Shown here piece after piece: positions 1-31,754 of a stretch of 39,303 bases of DNA. A model generated the notes under the pieces. The model ran no database searches and was not told the DNA's origin. It saw only the letters and a program-made list of their open reading frames with translations. The DNA comes from Gemmatimonadota bacterium (GTDB lineage Bacteria; Gemmatimonadota; Gemmatimonadetes; Longimicrobiales; Gaopeijiaceae): contig VXQO01000101.1 in the NCBI GenBank assembly GCA_009838975.1, positions 1-39,303 on the forward strand, in the 5' to 3' direction. Each line of letters starts with the position of its first letter. Positions within the stretch are counted from its first letter, which is position 1. The translations under genes and the position numbers were made by a program.

Positions 1-996
1 GCCACCCGCCGCTCCTTCCCCCGCCGCCTTGCCCGGGAAGCCCTCTTCGCCGCGGCCGCCCTCGCCGCCCTGCTTGCCTTCTACGCGGCGGCCGCCCTCA
101 TTCCGCGCCCCATGGCCGCGATCCGGCTGGCCTCGCCCGACCTCGTCGCGGTGGACTTCCATTCGCACACCAACCACTCGCACGACGGGTGGACGCTCTT
201 CACGGCGGCCCGCAACCGCGCGTGGCACGAGGCCGGCGGCTTCCACGCGGCCTACGTGACGGACCACTACACCTGGGCGGGCGTGGACGAAGCGTTGCCC
301 ACCAACCCCGCGCGCGCCGGCGACCGCACCGTCCTGCTCAGCGGCATGGAAGTGCGGCTGCGCGACCGGCACACGAACATCCTCGGCGACCGCGCCCGGT
401 ACGTCTTCGCGCTGGACAGCACCCTGCACCACCTCGACCCGGACTCGATCGCCGCCGCCCACCACCTCGGCGCCCGGCCCGCGACCATGCTGTACACGAT
501 CCCCGGCCCACTCGACCGGATCGTGCCGTTCGGACCCGGCTCGCCGGCCGGCGTGATCGGTGTGGAGCTCAGCGACGGGGCGCCGCGCGGTCTCGAGCAG
601 GCCCGTGCCGAGCGCGAAGAGATCCTCGCCCTCGCCGACAGCATGGATCTGGCGGTGGTGGCGGGCACCAACAACCACGGATGGGGACGCACCGTCCCGG
701 CGTGGAGCGTGATGCGGCTCCCGGGCTGGCCCGAGATGTCGCCGGACGAGCTCGGCAGCGCAATCGAGCGCACCCTGCACCGGGAACGGCGCCGCGCGGT
801 CACGGTATTGGAACGCACGATGCCGTATCACGACGGGGCGGCGGTCGAGCTGGCGGCCACCGTCCCGCTGCTGCTATGGTCGCACGTCCTCACCCTGACA
901 CCCGGGGAACGCGTATCCTGGCTGACCTGGATAGCGATCTGGGCCGCCCTGCGAGCTCACCGGGCCCGCCCCCTCGCCACGCGCGCTAACGGATGA
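1..996 (+). CDS. Membrane-anchored PHP-domain phosphoesterase-like protein, 5' partial
   Basis: The frame is open from base 1, so the true start lies upstream; the ATG at 112 is internal and would cut off a hydrophobic segment (window residues about 13-35) that looks like a membrane anchor. PHP-type metal ligands are visible in order: HSHTNHSHDG at residues 54-63, VTDHY, GMEV followed by RHTN, and GTNNHGW. PHP proteins use two or three metals to hydrolyse phosphoesters; the substrate here is unknown. The C-terminus has further hydrophobic stretches (VPLLLWSHVL and WLTWIAIWAAL), so both ends may be in the membrane. The stop overlaps the next start as ATGA, indicating translational coupling to the HupE-like gene. 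The fold assignment is fairly secure; the biochemical role is open. Confidence 0.8.
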   Translation, partial: ATRRSFPRRLAREALFAAAALAALLAFYAAAALIPRPMAAIRLASPDLVAVDFHSHTNHSHDGWTLFTAARNRAWHEAGGFHAAYVTDHYTWAGVDEALPTNPARAGDRTVLLSGMEVRLRDRHTNILGDRARYVFALDSTLHHLDPDSIAAAHHLGARPATMLYTIPGPLDRIVPFGPGSPAGVIGVELSDGAPRGLEQARAEREEILALADSMDLAVVAGTNNHGWGRTVPAWSVMRLPGWPEMSPDELGSAIERTLHRERRRAVTVLERTMPYHDGAAVELAATVPLLLWSHVLTLTPGERVSWLTWIAIWAALRAHRARPLATRANG

Positions 997-5401: not shown

Positions 5402-6565
5402 CTACCTGCCAGTCAGCGGCGGTCGCGTCCCTACCAACTCCCCTGCCGGCAACGCACGCACCCGCTCCGCGAGCCGATACCGCTCCGTCCCCGCGTGCAC
5501 CACATCAAGCCGGTCCAGTCCCAGCGTCTCCACCGCCGACCGCATCGACCTGGTCAGCCGCGGCGCCTCTGACCGCTTGACCTCGAATCCGTAGCGCCTC
5601 GATCCGTCCAGCACCAGCAGATCGAGCTCGGCGCCTGTGTGCGTCGACCAGTGGAAGCACTGCTCCGACGGAGCCCGCATCAACTGGACGATCTGCTGAA
5701 TCACGAACCCCTCCCACGAGGCACCGACCTTGGGATGCGACATCACATCCGTTCGGTCGGTGAGCCCGAGCAGCGCGTGGAGGACGCCCGAGTCCGCGAT
5801 GTAGACCTTGGGGGAACGCACCTGCCGCTTGCTGATGTTCTCGAACCAGGGCTGGAGCTGGCGAACCACGAAGACCGAGGTCAGGAGGTCCAGATAGCGC
5901 CGCACGGTGGTGTGGGAGACGCCGAATGCCCGTCCGAACTCGGCGCCGTTCCATAGTTGACCGTGCCAGTGGGCGAGCATCGTCCAGAACCGGCGTAGCG
6001 TCGTCGAGGGGATGGTGCTGCCGAGGTCCGGCAGATCCTGGGCCAGAAGTGTCTGGATGAAGCCATCGCGCCAGCGGCGGCTGGCGGCATCGGAGCCCGC
6101 CAGGTACGATCGCGGGAAGCTGCCGCGCAGCCAAAGCCGCTCCGGGTCGCCGACTTCCGTAAGGTCGAAACCATCGAGCACGTGAAAGGCGACGCGCCCG
6201 GCGAGCGACTCCGAGGTCTGCCGGAGCAGTTCGGTCGAGGCGCTCCCGAGGACGAGGAAACGAGCCGGAGCCCCCGGGCGGTCGGCGAGGACACGCAGCA
6301 GTTGGAAGACGTCCGGCAGCCGATGGATCTCGTCCAGGACCACCAGGCCACGCAGGGGCCGAAGCTCGAGTCCGGGGGCTTCCAGCCTGGCGAGATCGAC
6401 CGGGTCTTCCAGATCGAACCAGGCCACGGAATCCGGATGCGACTCGGCCAGTTGCCGTGCGAGGGTAGTCTTGCCAACCTGTCGCGCGCCCAGGAGGGCG
6501 ACGACCGGAAACTCGTCCAACAGAAGCCGAACGCGGGCCAGGTGATGCTCACGGGGAGTCAACAT
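5402..6565 (-). CDS. AAA (AAA_14) ATPase with C-terminal DUF4143 domain, copy 1
   Basis: A 387-residue protein of the common archaeal/bacterial AAA_14-DUF4143 family. Walker A GARQVGKT is at residues 26-33, Walker B LVVLDEIHRLP near 76-86, and a sensor-like GSAS follows. A winged-helix-like middle (FGVSHTTVRRYLDLL) precedes DUF4143, whose end has an ELDLLVLDGSRRYGFEVK pattern resembling PD-(D/E)xK nuclease folds. The biological role of this family is not established; members are often mobile and multicopy. There is no Shine-Dalgarno sequence before the ATG, so translation may be leaderless. It is convergent with the oxidase gene (23-nt gap) and divergent from the second ATPase. Confidence 0.88.
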   Translation of the reverse strand: MLTPREHHLARVRLLLDEFPVVALLGARQVGKTTLARQLAESHPDSVAWFDLEDPVDLARLEAPGLELRPLRGLVVLDEIHRLPDVFQLLRVLADRPGAPARFLVLGSASTELLRQTSESLAGRVAFHVLDGFDLTEVGDPERLWLRGSFPRSYLAGSDAASRRWRDGFIQTLLAQDLPDLGSTIPSTTLRRFWTMLAHWHGQLWNGAEFGRAFGVSHTTVRRYLDLLTSVFVVRQLQPWFENISKRQVRSPKVYIADSGVLHALLGLTDRTDVMSHPKVGASWEGFVIQQIVQLMRAPSEQCFHWSTHTGAELDLLVLDGSRRYGFEVKRSEAPRLTRSMRSAVETLGLDRLDVVHAGTERYRLAERVRALPAGELVGTRPPLTGR

Positions 6566-6735
6566 TATTGAAATATGAACGATTAGCGATCAGATTTCAA
6601 TTATAACCAGGACAAGAACTTGCGATTATGTCACTGGTAATATCGCAATACAATCATTACAAACGTTGCAATCGTGTCAACGCGGGGTTAATCTCCCTGG
6701 TTCCAGGCACACACGAGAGCCCGGAGGCCCGACCA
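6566..6735. promoter_or_regulatory. AT-rich divergent promoter region between two ATPase genes
   Basis: This 170-nt spacer, especially 6566-6680, is far richer in A and T than its surroundings. A perfect 7-bp inverted repeat, TTGCGAT (6620-6626) and ATCGCAA (6642-6648), is separated by 15 nt. Related elements lie nearby: TAGCGAT at about 6584-6590 and TTGCAATCG at about 6666-6674. The arrangement is what a shared operator for two divergent genes would look like. Exact promoter elements cannot be fixed by eye. The core TTGCGA also occurs in the tandem repeats ahead of the third ATPase gene. Confidence 0.55.
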
Positions 6736-8085
6736 ATGACCTACCACCCCGACATCCCCTCCGGCCACTTCGTGCGCGAACCCGCGCCGCGGTGGCCGCT
6801 CACGCCGATGCGCCGGGAGTACTGGCCCCGTGTGACGGATCGGGAACTGAAGGAGCGCCTGGCCCGATCCGGAGCGGTCCTGATCGAGGGGCCGCGGGCA
6901 TGTGGCAAGACGGCTACGGCCAGGCAACTCGCGGCCAGCGGTGTCCTGCTCGACGCTGACAGATCCGCCCGCAGGGCTGCCGAGGCCGATCCGGGACTCC
7001 TTCTCCAGGGGGAGGCGCCGCAGCTCATCGACGAGTGGCAGCTGGTGCCCGACATCTGGAACCATGTTCGCCATGCGGTCGATGACCGCCCAGGCCGGGG
7101 ACATTTCATCCTGACCGGTTCGGCTGTTCCGCCCGACGACATCACCCGGCACACGGGAGCGGGACGAATCGGTCGACTGCGGTTGCGGCCGATGTCGCTC
7201 CTGGAGCTGAAACGATCAACGGGAGGAGTATCGCTCGCCCGGCTGTTAACAGGTGCTCCGGTTCCCGGCTCCGTGGCGAAGCCGACCATACGCGAGCTTG
7301 CTGAGCTGATGTGCGTGGGCGGCTGGCCCGGCCATCTCGGCTCGTCGCTTGACGATCCGCCGCTGTCCGTGGATGACGCCATGGCGGAGAACCGGGACTA
7401 CCTCGGCGAAGTCTGCCGGACGGACATCCGGCGCGTGGACGGCTCGGACCGGGATCCGGCGAGGGTCGGACGATTCCTGCAGTCGCTGGGCCGCAACGTC
7501 GCCACGTGCGCCAGCATGGCCACGCTGGCCCGGGACGCCGGCGGACCGGACCAACACCTCGCCAACTTCACCGCCAACTCCTACATGACCGCACTCGAAC
7601 GCCTCATGCTCCTGGAGGATCAGCCGCCCTGGTCACCCCATCTTCGGTCCCGCTCGCGACTTCGGTCCGCGTCCAAGCGCCATTTCGTGGACCCGTCACT
7701 GGCCGTGGCCGCCCTGAGCGCGAGCCCCGATCATCTGCTCCACGACTTCGAGTGGTTCGGTTTCCTCTTCGAGTCGATGGTCATCCGGGATCTGCGAATC
7801 TACGCCCAGGCCAACACAGCGAGCGTGTACCACTACCGTGACAACACGGGGCTTGAGGTGGACGCCGTCGTCGACGCCGGGCCGGGGCGCTGGGCGGCGT
7901 TCGAGATCAAGCTGGGTGCGGCGCGGGTCGAAGAGGGTGCGAAGACGCTCCTGAAGTTCGCCGACCGGGTGGATACGGATCGCTGCGGGGAGCCCGCGGC
8001 ACTCGGCGTGATCGTGGGAAGCGGGTACGGCTACACGAGGTCGGACGGGGTGGGAGTGATCCCGGTGGGGGCGTTGGGAGTGTAG
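6736..8085 (+). CDS. AAA (AAA_14) ATPase with C-terminal DUF4143 domain, copy 2
   Basis: A 449-residue member of the same family as its divergent neighbour but clearly a different subgroup. The start at 6736 is supported by GGAGG at 6723-6727, 8 nt upstream; the longer in-frame start at 6628 lies inside the palindromic regulatory spacer. Walker A is GPRACGKT (residues 52-59), Walker B-like QLIDEWQLVP follows, then GHFILTGSAVP as sensor. The C-terminal DUF4143 part ends with LEVDAVVDAGPGRWAAFEIK, the D...ExK pattern of restriction-endonuclease-like folds. Role unknown. Together with copy 1 it fills the segment between the two 44-bp repeat copies, suggesting the pair arrived or moved as one unit. 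Confidence 0.85.
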   Translation: MTYHPDIPSGHFVREPAPRWPLTPMRREYWPRVTDRELKERLARSGAVLIEGPRACGKTATARQLAASGVLLDADRSARRAAEADPGLLLQGEAPQLIDEWQLVPDIWNHVRHAVDDRPGRGHFILTGSAVPPDDITRHTGAGRIGRLRLRPMSLLELKRSTGGVSLARLLTGAPVPGSVAKPTIRELAELMCVGGWPGHLGSSLDDPPLSVDDAMAENRDYLGEVCRTDIRRVDGSDRDPARVGRFLQSLGRNVATCASMATLARDAGGPDQHLANFTANSYMTALERLMLLEDQPPWSPHLRSRSRLRSASKRHFVDPSLAVAALSASPDHLLHDFEWFGFLFESMVIRDLRIYAQANTASVYHYRDNTGLEVDAVVDAGPGRWAAFEIKLGAARVEEGAKTLLKFADRVDTDRCGEPAALGVIVGSGYGYTRSDGVGVIPVGALGV

Positions 8086-30361: not shown

Positions 30362-31660
30362 TTATCCCGCCTTGTCTGCCGGTATCGGTAGCGGCAGGGC
30401 GTAGAAGCGCGTGGGCCCCCGATGGAACGGCAAAACCTCGGCTCCCGAGTAGAAGAGCACGCCATGTTCGAAGGCCGCCCCAGCCACTTCGGCCAGGGCA
30501 GCCAGGCCGTTGAAGTCGTCGCGGCGGACAGTGGCCGAGGCCTTGGTCTCCAGGCCGACGATGCGCCCGTCGGGCCGCTCCAGCACGATGTCGACCTCGC
30601 GCTTCCGCTTATCCCGAAAGTGGTAGAGCCCGACCTCCTCATCCGCCCACTCGGCGTGCTTGGCGCATTCCATGAAGACCAGCGTCTCCAGCAGCGCACC
30701 GTAGTGCGGGCTCAGGAGGAGCCGGGTCTCGTTGCGCAGGCCGAGAAGGTGGGACGAGAGGCCGGTGTCGACGAAGTGCATCTTCGGCATTCGCACGGCC
30801 ATGCGCCGGGCCAGATTCTTGCGATATGAGGGAACCCGGCGAATCAGGAACATCAGTTCGAGGATGTCCACGTAACTCTTGGCGAGCTTGTCGTTGAGTT
30901 CGAGGTCGTTGGCGAGGCTGGCGTACTTGAGCAGGTTGCCGCTCCGGCCAGCCAGGTAGGGCGCCAGCGCCCGCAGCTTCGAGTGGTAGTCGCCGCGGGC
31001 GGTGTAGAGTGACTCGAAGTCCTTGAAGAACCGCCCCTCGGTGTAGGATCTGAACCAGATGGTGCGGGCGCGACGGCCCATGCCCTGGACCTCGGGATAG
31101 CCGCCCAGCAGGATCAGCCGCGCGATCTCCTCACGGCCTGGAGAGGGCTGCGCCGAATCCACGGACGAGAAGTCTCCCGCCAGCAGGTAGTCAACCAGGT
31201 TGCGGCGACTGTCTCGAATCTCGGCAACCGAAAGGGGCAGGAGTTCGAGGCGGGCCATGTGGCCGGGCAGGGCCTCCTGGGCCCGCGCCGAACGGAAAAT
31301 GTCGGCGGAGCCGGTGAGGAGGAAGAGTCCCTTGCGCGGCACTCCCGACGTCCTGTCGATGAGGGGAGCACTGGCAAGCCGGTCTGACGCCTCCTTGATG
31401 GCAGGTACCAGTTCGGGCACCTGCTGGAATTCATCCAACACGACGGACCGGCCCCTGAACGACCTGACGAAACCGTGGGGATCGCCCGCCGCCGAAGCCT
31501 GGACGGAGGGATCGTCCAGAGTGAGATAGCGCAGACCCACCCCCGCGGCTACGCTGCGGGCCAGCGTGGTCTTGCCGGACTGCCTGGGACCGGTAACGTA
31601 GACGATCCGGAACTCGCTGAGCATACTGCGCACGAGTGGATGGAGGTGTCTGGAGTACAT
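30362..31660 (-). CDS. AAA (AAA_14) ATPase with C-terminal DUF4143 domain, copy 3
   Basis: A 432-residue member of the same family as the two at 5402-8085. Walker A is GPRQSGKT (24-31), Walker B SVVLDEFQQVPEL, sensor FLLTGSADIF. The DUF4143 part includes FVDTGLSSHLLGL and ends KREVDIVLERPDGRIVGLETK, again a D...ExK pattern. Function is unestablished. No Shine-Dalgarno sequence is evident at the ATG. It is antiparallel to the LIV genes and interrupts them. Three degenerate 22-bp tandem repeats lie 28 nt upstream of its start. Confidence 0.87.
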   Translation of the reverse strand: MYSRHLHPLVRSMLSEFRIVYVTGPRQSGKTTLARSVAAGVGLRYLTLDDPSVQASAAGDPHGFVRSFRGRSVVLDEFQQVPELVPAIKEASDRLASAPLIDRTSGVPRKGLFLLTGSADIFRSARAQEALPGHMARLELLPLSVAEIRDSRRNLVDYLLAGDFSSVDSAQPSPGREEIARLILLGGYPEVQGMGRRARTIWFRSYTEGRFFKDFESLYTARGDYHSKLRALAPYLAGRSGNLLKYASLANDLELNDKLAKSYVDILELMFLIRRVPSYRKNLARRMAVRMPKMHFVDTGLSSHLLGLRNETRLLLSPHYGALLETLVFMECAKHAEWADEEVGLYHFRDKRKREVDIVLERPDGRIVGLETKASATVRRDDFNGLAALAEVAGAAFEHGVLFYSGAEVLPFHRGPTRFYALPLPIPADKAG

Positions 31661-31688
31661 CGGTGTGTCGTCGACGGGCGGAGCGATC

Positions 31689-31754
31689 CTTACTACGAGG
31701 ACTCCATATTCTTATTACGAGAAATCTAATCCCTTATTGCGAAAAATCAATTCC
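31689..31754. repeat. Three tandem degenerate 22-bp repeats upstream of ATPase copy 3
   Basis: Copies occupy 31689-31710, 31711-31732 and 31733-31754. Each begins CTTA(C/T)T(A/G)CGA; copies 2 and 3 agree at 18 of 22 positions, copies 1 and 2 at 14. Twenty-two bases is close to two helical turns, so the copies would lie on one face of the DNA, as expected for cooperative binding of a regulator. The tract is AT-rich in GC-rich DNA. It sits between the ATPase gene (minus) and the M20 gene (plus) and could control either. Copy 3 contains TTGCGA, also present in the spacer between the other two ATPases. Confidence 0.65.

What the first reader, a model, noticed from the sequence alone, without database searches (positions are those of the whole stretch)
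6566..6735. AT-rich spacer with a 7-bp inverted repeat as likely shared operator of the ATPase pair
TTGCGAT-N15-ATCGCAA (6620-6648) is perfect and lies midway between two divergent genes, in DNA much richer in A and T than the surroundings. Further TAGCGAT and TTGCAATCG elements nearby suggest several binding sites. DUF4143 ATPases have a winged-helix-like segment, so self-regulation is conceivable but unproven.
Basis: partly seen in the sequence, partly recalled or inferred. Interest (0 to 1): 0.5.

Follow-up and report, generated by a model that had tools for sequence, protein, structure and literature searches.

The report
Self-read promoter palindromes of DUF4143 ATPases
A very common but unexplained family of bacterial ATPase-nuclease genes, listed as a candidate virus defence, carries at its own promoter a mirror-symmetric or repeated DNA address that varies from gene to gene in step with the part of the protein that reads DNA, so these proteins probably regulate themselves by binding their own start.

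Summary
It is better read as part of three head-to-tail units (starts 6620, 6643, 6666; 23-bp step) kept in two orthologous spacers; TTGCAA is its own reverse complement. It belongs to the family: a motif learned from one gene set and tested on the other finds it in 77/84 genes of mixed phyla and 76/140 Gemmatimonadota genes, against 14/224 in-gene controls. Other members carry 21-23-bp direct repeats. Operator bases co-vary with residues 218 and 219 at the start of the protein's own recognition helix and 309 and 310 beside the nuclease active site; in 18 distant new genes these rank 1st, 1st, 3rd and 1st of 375 columns as predictors. Each DUF4143 ATPase thus most likely binds a private operator over its own promoter and regulates itself. 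The two window genes have separate operators, not a shared one. Binding and the sign of regulation are inferred.

The parts
5402..6565 (-). minus gene: AAA_14 ATPase + winged helix + DUF4143 (PD-(D/E)XK-type) protein, 387 aa; PADLOC PDC-S01
   Evidence: Pfam AAA_14 4.7e-23 and DUF4143 1.9e-42; PADLOC PDC-S01 7.2e-84; AF2 model pLDDT 94
6564..6604 (.). operator of the minus gene: palindrome centred on 6584, core 6568-6600; family symmetry extends to about +-20; the minus ATG lies at centre +19
   Evidence: 13 of 16 pairs symmetric, 0.2% of shuffles; held-out motif p 0.010, the lowest value that test can give, inverted-repeat p 0.030 (L014-); same palindrome beside other DUF4143 genes
6572..6600 (-). 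promoter-like hexamers TTGAAA (6600-6595) and CATATT (6577-6572) inside the two half-sites, followed at once by the ATG
   Evidence: consensus scan, 9 of 12 matches; the +19 class has such hexamers in the same register (no shuffle control for that class); function inferred
5897..5917 (-). codons 217-223, N-terminus of the winged-helix recognition helix; residues 218 and 219 couple to operator positions 5-8
5576..5641 (-). codons 309-330: loop residues 309/310 (couple to operator positions 13 and 16), then E313, D315, E328, K330
6620..6635 (+). unit 1 of the direct-repeat array before the plus gene, TTGCGATTATGTCACT
   Evidence: below the half-site score cut-off in the window copy, above it in G015
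6643..6658 (+). unit 2, TCGCAATACAATCATT (23-bp step)
6666..6681 (+). unit 3, TTGCAATCGTGTCAAC (23-bp step)
6736..8085 (+). plus gene: divergent DUF4143 ATPase of another subfamily (GPRACGKT Walker A), 449 aa; GGAGG at 6723 suggests ATG 6736 rather than 6628
   Evidence: DUF4143 4.5e-34
31677..31742 (-). three 22-bp direct repeats (TCGYARTAAG) before the third DUF4143 gene of the window
   Evidence: direct-repeat p 0.005 (L016)
30362..31660 (-). third DUF4143 ATPase gene of the window, 432 aa

Best explanation
The spacer holds two separate self-operators. The minus gene's operator is a palindrome of about 41 bp centred on 6584. Its outer half-site frame, about TCCTTGnAAAT, is shared by the family at fixed offsets, and its inner bases (+-4 to 8) differ from gene to gene. 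The plus gene's operator is an array of the same kind of half-site, TTGCAA(A)T, set head-to-tail at 23 bp. The gene's own product (AAA+ ATPase, winged helix, PD-(D/E)XK-type domain) most likely binds it: the recognition helix (residues 217-223) reads the inner bases, and the 306-311 loop of the nuclease-type domain reads the outer bases. Because the site covers promoter-like hexamers and often the start codon, binding would block transcription. The gene would then be autorepressed, and released when ATP state, assembly or titration by an invader removes the protein. Shown by computation: the family-wide site, its fixed geometry, and the residue-base coupling with out-of-sample ranking. Inferred: physical binding, repression, the release signal, and that the plus gene's array is bound by its own product.
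For: Inverted repeats at the start: p<=0.01 in 67 of 186 genes, against 2 of 176 (400 bp upstream) and 0 of 186 (in gene). Aligned on the symmetry axis alone, the 48 sites of the mixed-phyla set share C at +-14 in 95%. Held-out motif test at p<=0.05: 77/84 and 76/140, against 14/224 in-gene controls; symmetry 0.65-0.68 at +-4..7, positions the model did not use, against 0.24-0.29 at +-25..29. Mismatches in arms show no RNA bias: 11 G-T, 14 A-C. The window-type palindrome (up to 2 mismatches) occurs 13 times in 24 genomes, reversed control 0, 10 of them at one fixed distance from a DUF4143 Walker A. The family pattern in 395 genomes gives 9 hits, reversed control 0, 6 of them directly before DUF4143 genes, one of the six being a training gene. 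Coupling: of 9750 pairs the top is residue 219 with d6, z 14.6; then 309-d13, 218-d7, 219-d5, 310-d16; 0 of 100 clade-restricted shuffles reach 219-d6, 218-d7 or 309-d13. Out of sample, on 18 distant new genes: 219 for d6, 218 for d7 and 310 for d16 each rank 1 of 375 columns, 309 for d13 ranks 3 (d6 and d7 were not used to place the site, d13 and d16 were). All 8 plasmid genes fetched (of 180 records) have the site, p 0.005; the four with K219 all have CC at d5-6, Runella P219 has TT. Motif, inverted or direct repeat at p<=0.01: 179 of 224 genes, against 9 of 224 controls. All 224, 186 and 102 genes match the family profile.
Against: No binding or expression data. A global partial Mantel test gave no winged-helix-specific signal (partial r -0.03 to 0.02), only covariation with the whole protein. 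In the Gemmatimonadota subset alone (76 genes, effective 21) 219-d6 is not among the top 16 pairs. Top-base accuracy for 219-d6 on the 18 far genes (0.53) does not beat the background guess (0.56), though the log-likelihood gain is positive. 25 of the 102 new genes show no site at p<=0.05; 45 of 224 genes show none of the three signals at p<=0.01. Six of 22 pattern sites lie at no intact DUF4143 gene. The window's own direct repeat is not significant alone (lag 23, p 0.14); its orthologs in G013 and G015 are (p 0.002 and 0.001; best lag free, 0.06 and 0.001).
Confidence: 0.85

Rival explanations
1. The palindrome is chiefly the target of the protein's nuclease domain: a sequence-specific, ATP-gated nuclease whose own start site is the recognised address, used against incoming DNA that carries the same address (competing copies, plasmids); autoregulation is a by-product.
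For: Catalytic-type residues E313, E328 and K330 are invariant and D315 nearly invariant in A2. Residues 309/310, which couple to the outer half-site, are three to four residues before E313. In five of the seven annotated plasmid regions the gene lies beside or near repABC genes, an integrase or a recombinase (not in 94 and 98). PADLOC lists the family as a phage defence candidate.
Against: The host carries the site intact. The site overlaps promoter-like hexamers and often the start codon in a fixed register, as expected of an operator. In viral contigs 54 stretches hold the pattern, none at a DUF4143 gene.
Confidence: 0.15
2. A separate host transcription factor binds the sites.
For: Promoter-proximal palindromes are often bound by regulators encoded elsewhere (general knowledge).
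Against: The same frame follows the gene across at least a dozen phylum-level labels in the record titles of the positive loci, and inner bases co-vary with single residues of the gene's own recognition helix.
Confidence: 0.04
3. RNA hairpin or attenuator at the 5' end of the messenger.
For: Long inverted repeats just before the start codon.
Against: Mismatched positions show no excess of G-T over A-C (11 to 14); 70 of 80 strong palindromes have an odd span with the axis on a base; the direct-repeat class is not explained by a hairpin (inference).
Confidence: 0.02
4. For 6620-6648 only: the perfect inverted repeat is itself the operator of both genes.
For: Arms stay 6 of 7 complementary in G013 and G015, because TTGCAA is self-complementary (sequences).
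Against: A third unit lies at the same 23-bp step, and bases beyond the core repeat in direct orientation; the same half-site stands head-to-tail in L319 and L325; each gene's element is found without the other's.
Confidence: 0.06

Closest known systems
PDC-S01 (PADLOC phage defence candidate; AAA_14 + DUF4143)
   Same: Both window proteins and two paralogs match PDC-S01 models. PMC12988326 describes S01 as an ATPase fused to a PD-(D/E)XK-superfamily member and as the fourth most common defence across prokaryotes (passages read).
   Different: The passages read name no operator, palindrome or DNA target; [quoted passage not shown]
Archaeal ATPases 2qen and 2fna and STAND ATPases (CED-4, plant NLRs, AVAST5)
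   Same: AAA core plus winged helix; Z 17.1 and 16.8 over residues 1-267 and 1-266.
   Different: DUF4143 adds a PD-(D/E)XK-type domain, and here the winged helix appears to read DNA.
Autoregulated single-gene repressors with cognate palindromes (recalled class)
   Same: Operator overlaps the gene's own promoter; recognition-helix residues co-vary with operator bases.
   Different: The binder is an ATPase-nuclease; outer bases appear to be read by the nuclease-type domain; the same half-site is used either as a palindrome or as a 22-23-bp tandem array.
RAYT/REP systems (recalled)
   Same: Gene linked to palindromes.
   Different: Sites are almost only at the gene itself, not scattered; no HUH transposase domain among the Pfam hits of the window proteins.

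Membership tests
AAA_14-DUF4143 ATPase family | AAA_14 and DUF4143 domains above the curated cut-offs | tested here: met
   82 and 145.1 bits (minus gene), 48.5 and 117.9 bits (plus gene), cut-offs 27 and 28.1
AAA_14-DUF4143 ATPase family | PD-(D/E)XK catalytic-type residues | tested here: met
   E313, E328, K330 invariant and D315 nearly invariant in A2 (56 sequences); activity not tested
PDC-S01 phage defence candidate | match to the PADLOC model | tested here: met
   7.2e-84 and 5.7e-66
PDC-S01 phage defence candidate | protects against phage | not testable with these tools
   no assay; validation pending for most PDCs (PMC12988326, passages)
Self-regulating DNA-binding protein | cognate site at its own promoter, conserved with the gene | tested here: met
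Self-regulating DNA-binding protein | specificity residues co-vary with site bases | tested here: met
   but the global Mantel test was negative and the Gemmatimonadota subset alone did not show 219-d6
Self-regulating DNA-binding protein | protein binds the site and changes its own transcription | not testable with these tools
   needs EMSA, footprint, reporter
RAYT/REP element | palindromes dispersed in many genomic copies | tested here: not met
   13 sites in 24 genomes, 10 at DUF4143 genes
STAND NTPase | STAND-type NTPase-winged-helix core by structure | tested here: inconclusive
   Z 12-17 to archaeal ATPases, CED-4, NLRs and AVAST5, but also to ORC, p97 and dynein modules

The most novel reading that the evidence does not exclude
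PDC-S01 proteins are addressable nucleases with a readable code. Each reads a private DNA address with its winged helix (inner bases) and nuclease-type domain (outer bases), keeps one copy of that address over its own start codon as a self-silencing tether, and is released to act on DNA when the tether is titrated or when a foreign copy of the address arrives. That would make the family an exclusion or defence system whose targets could be read from the sequence of each gene's own promoter.
Probability: 0.2. Interest if true: 0.93.

Novelty: new variant of a known kind. Interest (0 to 1): 0.8.

Why it matters
The family is counted among the most abundant candidate defence systems in prokaryotes (PMC12988326, passages), yet full-text searches of the open library found one paper that names DUF4143, seven that name COG1373 (listing only) and three that name PDC-S01. 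A conserved operator with a residue-to-base code gives a first handle on what these proteins bind, makes cognate sites predictable from sequence, and turns 'function unknown' into a test that a binding assay can settle. Two arrangements of one half-site (palindrome, or tandem array) also bear on how these ATPases assemble on DNA.

Tried and rejected
Shared operator for both window genes: rejected. RNA hairpin: no G-T excess. The first palindrome pattern used a spacing one base short and found only two weak places, neither in this spacer; corrected. Global partial Mantel test for a winged-helix-specific link: negative. Selection for different operators within one genome: inner mismatches 3.11 within (36 pairs) against 2.93 between genomes (347 pairs) at 45-60% identity, so no real evidence. 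A -35 in the palindrome centre for genes starting at +30 to +36: 25 of 54 against 39% in shuffles at 4 of 6, hardly enriched; the -10 after the arm is (37 of 54 against 30%). Motif in viral contigs: 54 stretches, 0 at DUF4143 genes. Papers: PF13635/PF13173/AAA14 returned unrelated papers in the 20 listed of 571; archaeal ATPase with operator terms: 34 papers, the 10 listed not on this family; ATPase/palindrome/AAA_14 terms: 10 listed of 17,316, not on this family by title and abstract start. NCBIfam: no match for the four proteins tried. Rows of the structure search hardly cover residues beyond 299, so the PD-(D/E)XK label rests on motif residues, predicted secondary structure and PMC12988326.

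Limits of the sets: genes were picked by a Walker A pattern in loci fetched for DUF4143 matches; all 224, 186 and 102 were later found to match the profile of A1. The Gemmatimonadota name for the window's genome is inferred from L060 and from a contig shared by G010 and L106. Start codons were chosen by rule, except seven annotated plasmid genes.

Rows dropped before counts: identical genes removed (188 to 186); genes with too little upstream sequence skipped; even-span palindromes left out of the axis alignment; proteins shorter than 330 aa left out of the validation set; L127 (one stop in the stretch) and twelve other rows of the first list left out of A2. One search printed a counter 'max>=obs' that the script never filled; it is not used.

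Full report
OBSERVATION. The inverted repeat TTGCGAT-N15-ATCGCAA is exactly at 6620-6648 in a 170-bp spacer of low GC between two divergent DUF4143 ATPase genes. It is unique in the held genome. As a 7-bp repeat it is not remarkable: 15.9% of shuffled spacers hold one.

WHAT IS CONSERVED. A search of 59 genomes with the spacer matched 8, the window's own among them, in two different blocks. One is about 6567-6601, next to the minus gene's ATG: a 33-bp palindrome, TTGAAATATGAACGAT-T-AGCGATCAGATTTCAA, 13 of 16 pairs; in G006 it also has 13 of 16, with the 12 outer pairs unbroken. The other is the half next to the plus gene. There, G013 and G015 keep units TTGC(A/G)AT... at exactly 23-bp steps (offsets 30/53/76 and 31/54/77); the lag-23 repeat has p 0.002 and 0.001 in them, but 0.14 in the window's own, decayed copy. 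G001 has two such units. A half-site matrix taken from the palindromes finds the same half-site head-to-tail in these spacers: offsets 48/71/94 in G015, and four to five units in L319 and L325. TTGCAA is its own reverse complement, so two tandem units look like an inverted repeat; that explains the finding.

FAMILY-WIDE. The genome holds 19 DUF4143 matches, fragments included; 14 relatives of the genus hold 6 to 32. In 186 DUF4143 genes (102 from Gemmatimonadota genomes, 84 of mixed phyla from the 80 loci kept of 527 relatives) the best inverted repeat from -90 to +15 of the start has p<=0.01 in 67, against 2 of 176 at -400 and 0 of 186 inside genes. Aligning 90 odd-span palindromes only on their symmetry axis reveals a shared sequence at fixed offsets: in the mixed-phyla sites (48) C at +-14 in 95%, T at 12 in 93%, A at 15 in 84%, T at 11 in 79%, G at 17 in 71% and at 18 in 68%, that is TCCTTGnAAAT facing its complement. 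A model trained on the Gemmatimonadota sites and tested on the mixed-phyla genes is positive (p<=0.05) in 77 of 84; the reverse gives 76 of 140; in-gene controls 14 of 224. At p<=0.01 the numbers are 67 of 84, 62 of 140, and 2 of 224. Symmetry extends over about +-20, including inner positions 4-7 that the model did not use. The seven negatives are listed. Three of the 84 are themselves Gemmatimonadota. The start codon lies at +19 of the centre in 68 of 230 sites, inside the palindrome (CAAGGATG), at +20 in 20, at +31 to +33 in 44, at +11 in 14, the rest spread.

DIRECT-REPEAT CLASS. In 224 genes, 42 have a significant direct repeat at lags 15-40; 32 of these 42 are at 21-23 bp; controls 2 of 224. 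Motif, inverted repeat or direct repeat at p<=0.01: 179 of 224, controls 9 of 224. The window's third DUF4143 gene has three 22-bp units at 31677-31742.

PATTERN TESTS. The palindrome pattern of the minus gene, with up to 2 mismatches, occurs 13 times in 24 genomes (reversed control 0); 10 lie at one and the same distance from a DUF4143 Walker A, the window's own included; of the other three, L208 is followed by what looks by eye like a remnant of the gene's first codons, and L202 and L203 show no DUF4143-type Walker A frame within the 1.5 kb held. The family pattern CCTTGnAAA-N19-TTTnCAAGG occurs 9 times in 395 genomes (reversed control 0); 6 stand directly before DUF4143 genes, one of them (G002:C54) a gene of the training set; 3 are orphan palindromes of one genus. 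I fetched 8 of the 180 plasmid records with a relative, from Thermus, Rhizobium, Mesorhizobium, Aminobacter, Sinorhizobium, Dinoroseobacter (two) and Runella; seven have annotated starts; all 8 have the site (p 0.005). Three of the eight (L443-L445) were already in the set. The Thermus site is the least symmetric (9 of 19 pairs).

WHO BINDS IT. The AF2 model (pLDDT 94) shows an AAA core, a winged helix (helices 187-199, 207-214, 218-230, strands 234-239 and 253-256) and a C-terminal domain with E313, D315, E328, K330. Mutual information between operator positions and protein columns over 153 genes (effective 54; 9750 pairs) puts residue 219 with d6 first (z 14.6), then 309-d13, 218-d7, 219-d5, 310-d16, 218-d8, 217-d5 (same leaders). 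Residues 217-219 are at the N-terminus of the recognition helix; 309/310 are in the loop before the catalytic-type E313. Shuffling operators only among proteins of at least 45% identity never reaches 219-d6, 218-d7 or 309-d13 in 100 trials. Typical pairs, weighted counts on 230 genes: P219 with T6 (10.4 of 12.9), K219 with C6 (9.7 of 12.2), H218 with C7 (10.3 of 12.3), D218 with G7 (6.0 of 8.0), H309 with T13 (21.2 of 26.2). The window's minus protein has H218 and T219, and its operator arms read GTTCA and GATCA at d4-8 (C7, A8, T6). Validation: 102 new genes, 77 with a site; on the 18 with less than 70% identity to any training protein, residue 219 is the best of 375 columns for d6, 218 for d7, 310 for d16, and 309 is third for d13. 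Only outer positions 9-19 placed these sites, so d6 and d7 are free of that choice; d13 and d16 are not. Results against: a global partial Mantel test showed no winged-helix-specific signal; the Gemmatimonadota subset alone did not show 219-d6 among its top 16; top-base accuracy for 219-d6 on the 18 far genes was 0.53 against 0.56 for the background guess.

MECHANISM. Best reading: each protein binds its own operator as a symmetric assembly. In the +19 class, -35-like hexamers lie in the left half-site (53 of 68 with at least 4 of 6 matches) and -10-like ones in the right half-site (33 of 68); no shuffle control was run for this class. In the +30 to +36 class a -10-like hexamer follows the right arm in 37 of 54 (30% in shuffles). 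So binding would close the promoter and, in many genes, the start codon. My probabilities: site real and family-wide 0.97; bound by its own product 0.9; net effect repression 0.75. What relieves it is unknown. One recorded expression change may be a lead: a DUF4143 gene of T. thermophilus HB27 (TT_P0211) rose 6.6-fold in plasmid-bearing wild type; the authors say that Argonaute directly or indirectly influences these genes, and they saw no such change in the ago mutant (PMC4406477, section 7 read in full). I did not establish that TT_P0211 is the HB8 gene.

COMPARISON AND NOVELTY. The proteins match PADLOC's PDC-S01, which PMC12988326 (passages) calls the fourth most common defence across prokaryotes and whose class it says is mostly unvalidated. 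PMC13356809 (passages) counts it as the most frequent individual locus in rumen genomes. Searches for DUF4143, COG1373, PDC-S01 and related terms showed no description of such operators in what I saw; the library holds open papers only. Autoregulation by a winged helix is a known kind; an ATPase-nuclease that carries a private, readable address at its own start, in palindromic or tandem form, is a new variant.

Noticed in passing
window 30362-31742: A third DUF4143 ATPase gene lies in the same window with three 22-bp direct repeats upstream; L174 and L287 hold three to four nearly identical 22-bp units before related genes.
   Followed up: partly
L003 (G013:C21): Divergent pair as in the window, but the minus gene has lost its palindrome and N-terminus and its matched stretch holds one TAA, while the plus gene and its three units are intact.
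   Followed up: partly
L006, L008, L009 around 1501-1560: Palindrome after the same upstream gene in three genomes with no intact DUF4143 gene behind it; in L006 and L008 the next bases look by eye like remnants of the gene's first codons, in L009 less so.
   Followed up: partly
L219, L220, L221 at 1501-1537: Orphan, nearly identical palindromes CCTTGCAAATCCGG-N9-CCGGATTTGCAAGG in three species of one genus with no DUF4143 gene within 1.5 kb; the three genomes hold 8 to 15 DUF4143 matches elsewhere.
   Followed up: partly
DUF4143 genes are strongly expanded in this group: 6 to 32 matches, fragments included, in 15 genomes of the genus.
   Followed up: no
L061: A gene 83% identical in protein sequence lies in a contig binned as Gammaproteobacteria from a sample series (RHO) that also gave the closest Gemmatimonadota gene (L060): transfer or mis-binning.
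   Followed up: no
L443, L444, L445, L447, L449: On alphaproteobacterial plasmids DUF4143 genes stand beside or near repABC genes, integrases, recombinases or TniB/TniQ genes.
   Followed up: no
window 6628: The plus reading frame is open from an ATG inside unit 1 (6628), but the ribosome-site-like GGAGG at 6723 favours ATG 6736.
   Followed up: no
L018, about 70-120 bp before the ATG: Long runs of G (up to 19) before a DUF4143 gene that shares the window palindrome and the recognition helix HTTVRRYLD.
   Followed up: no
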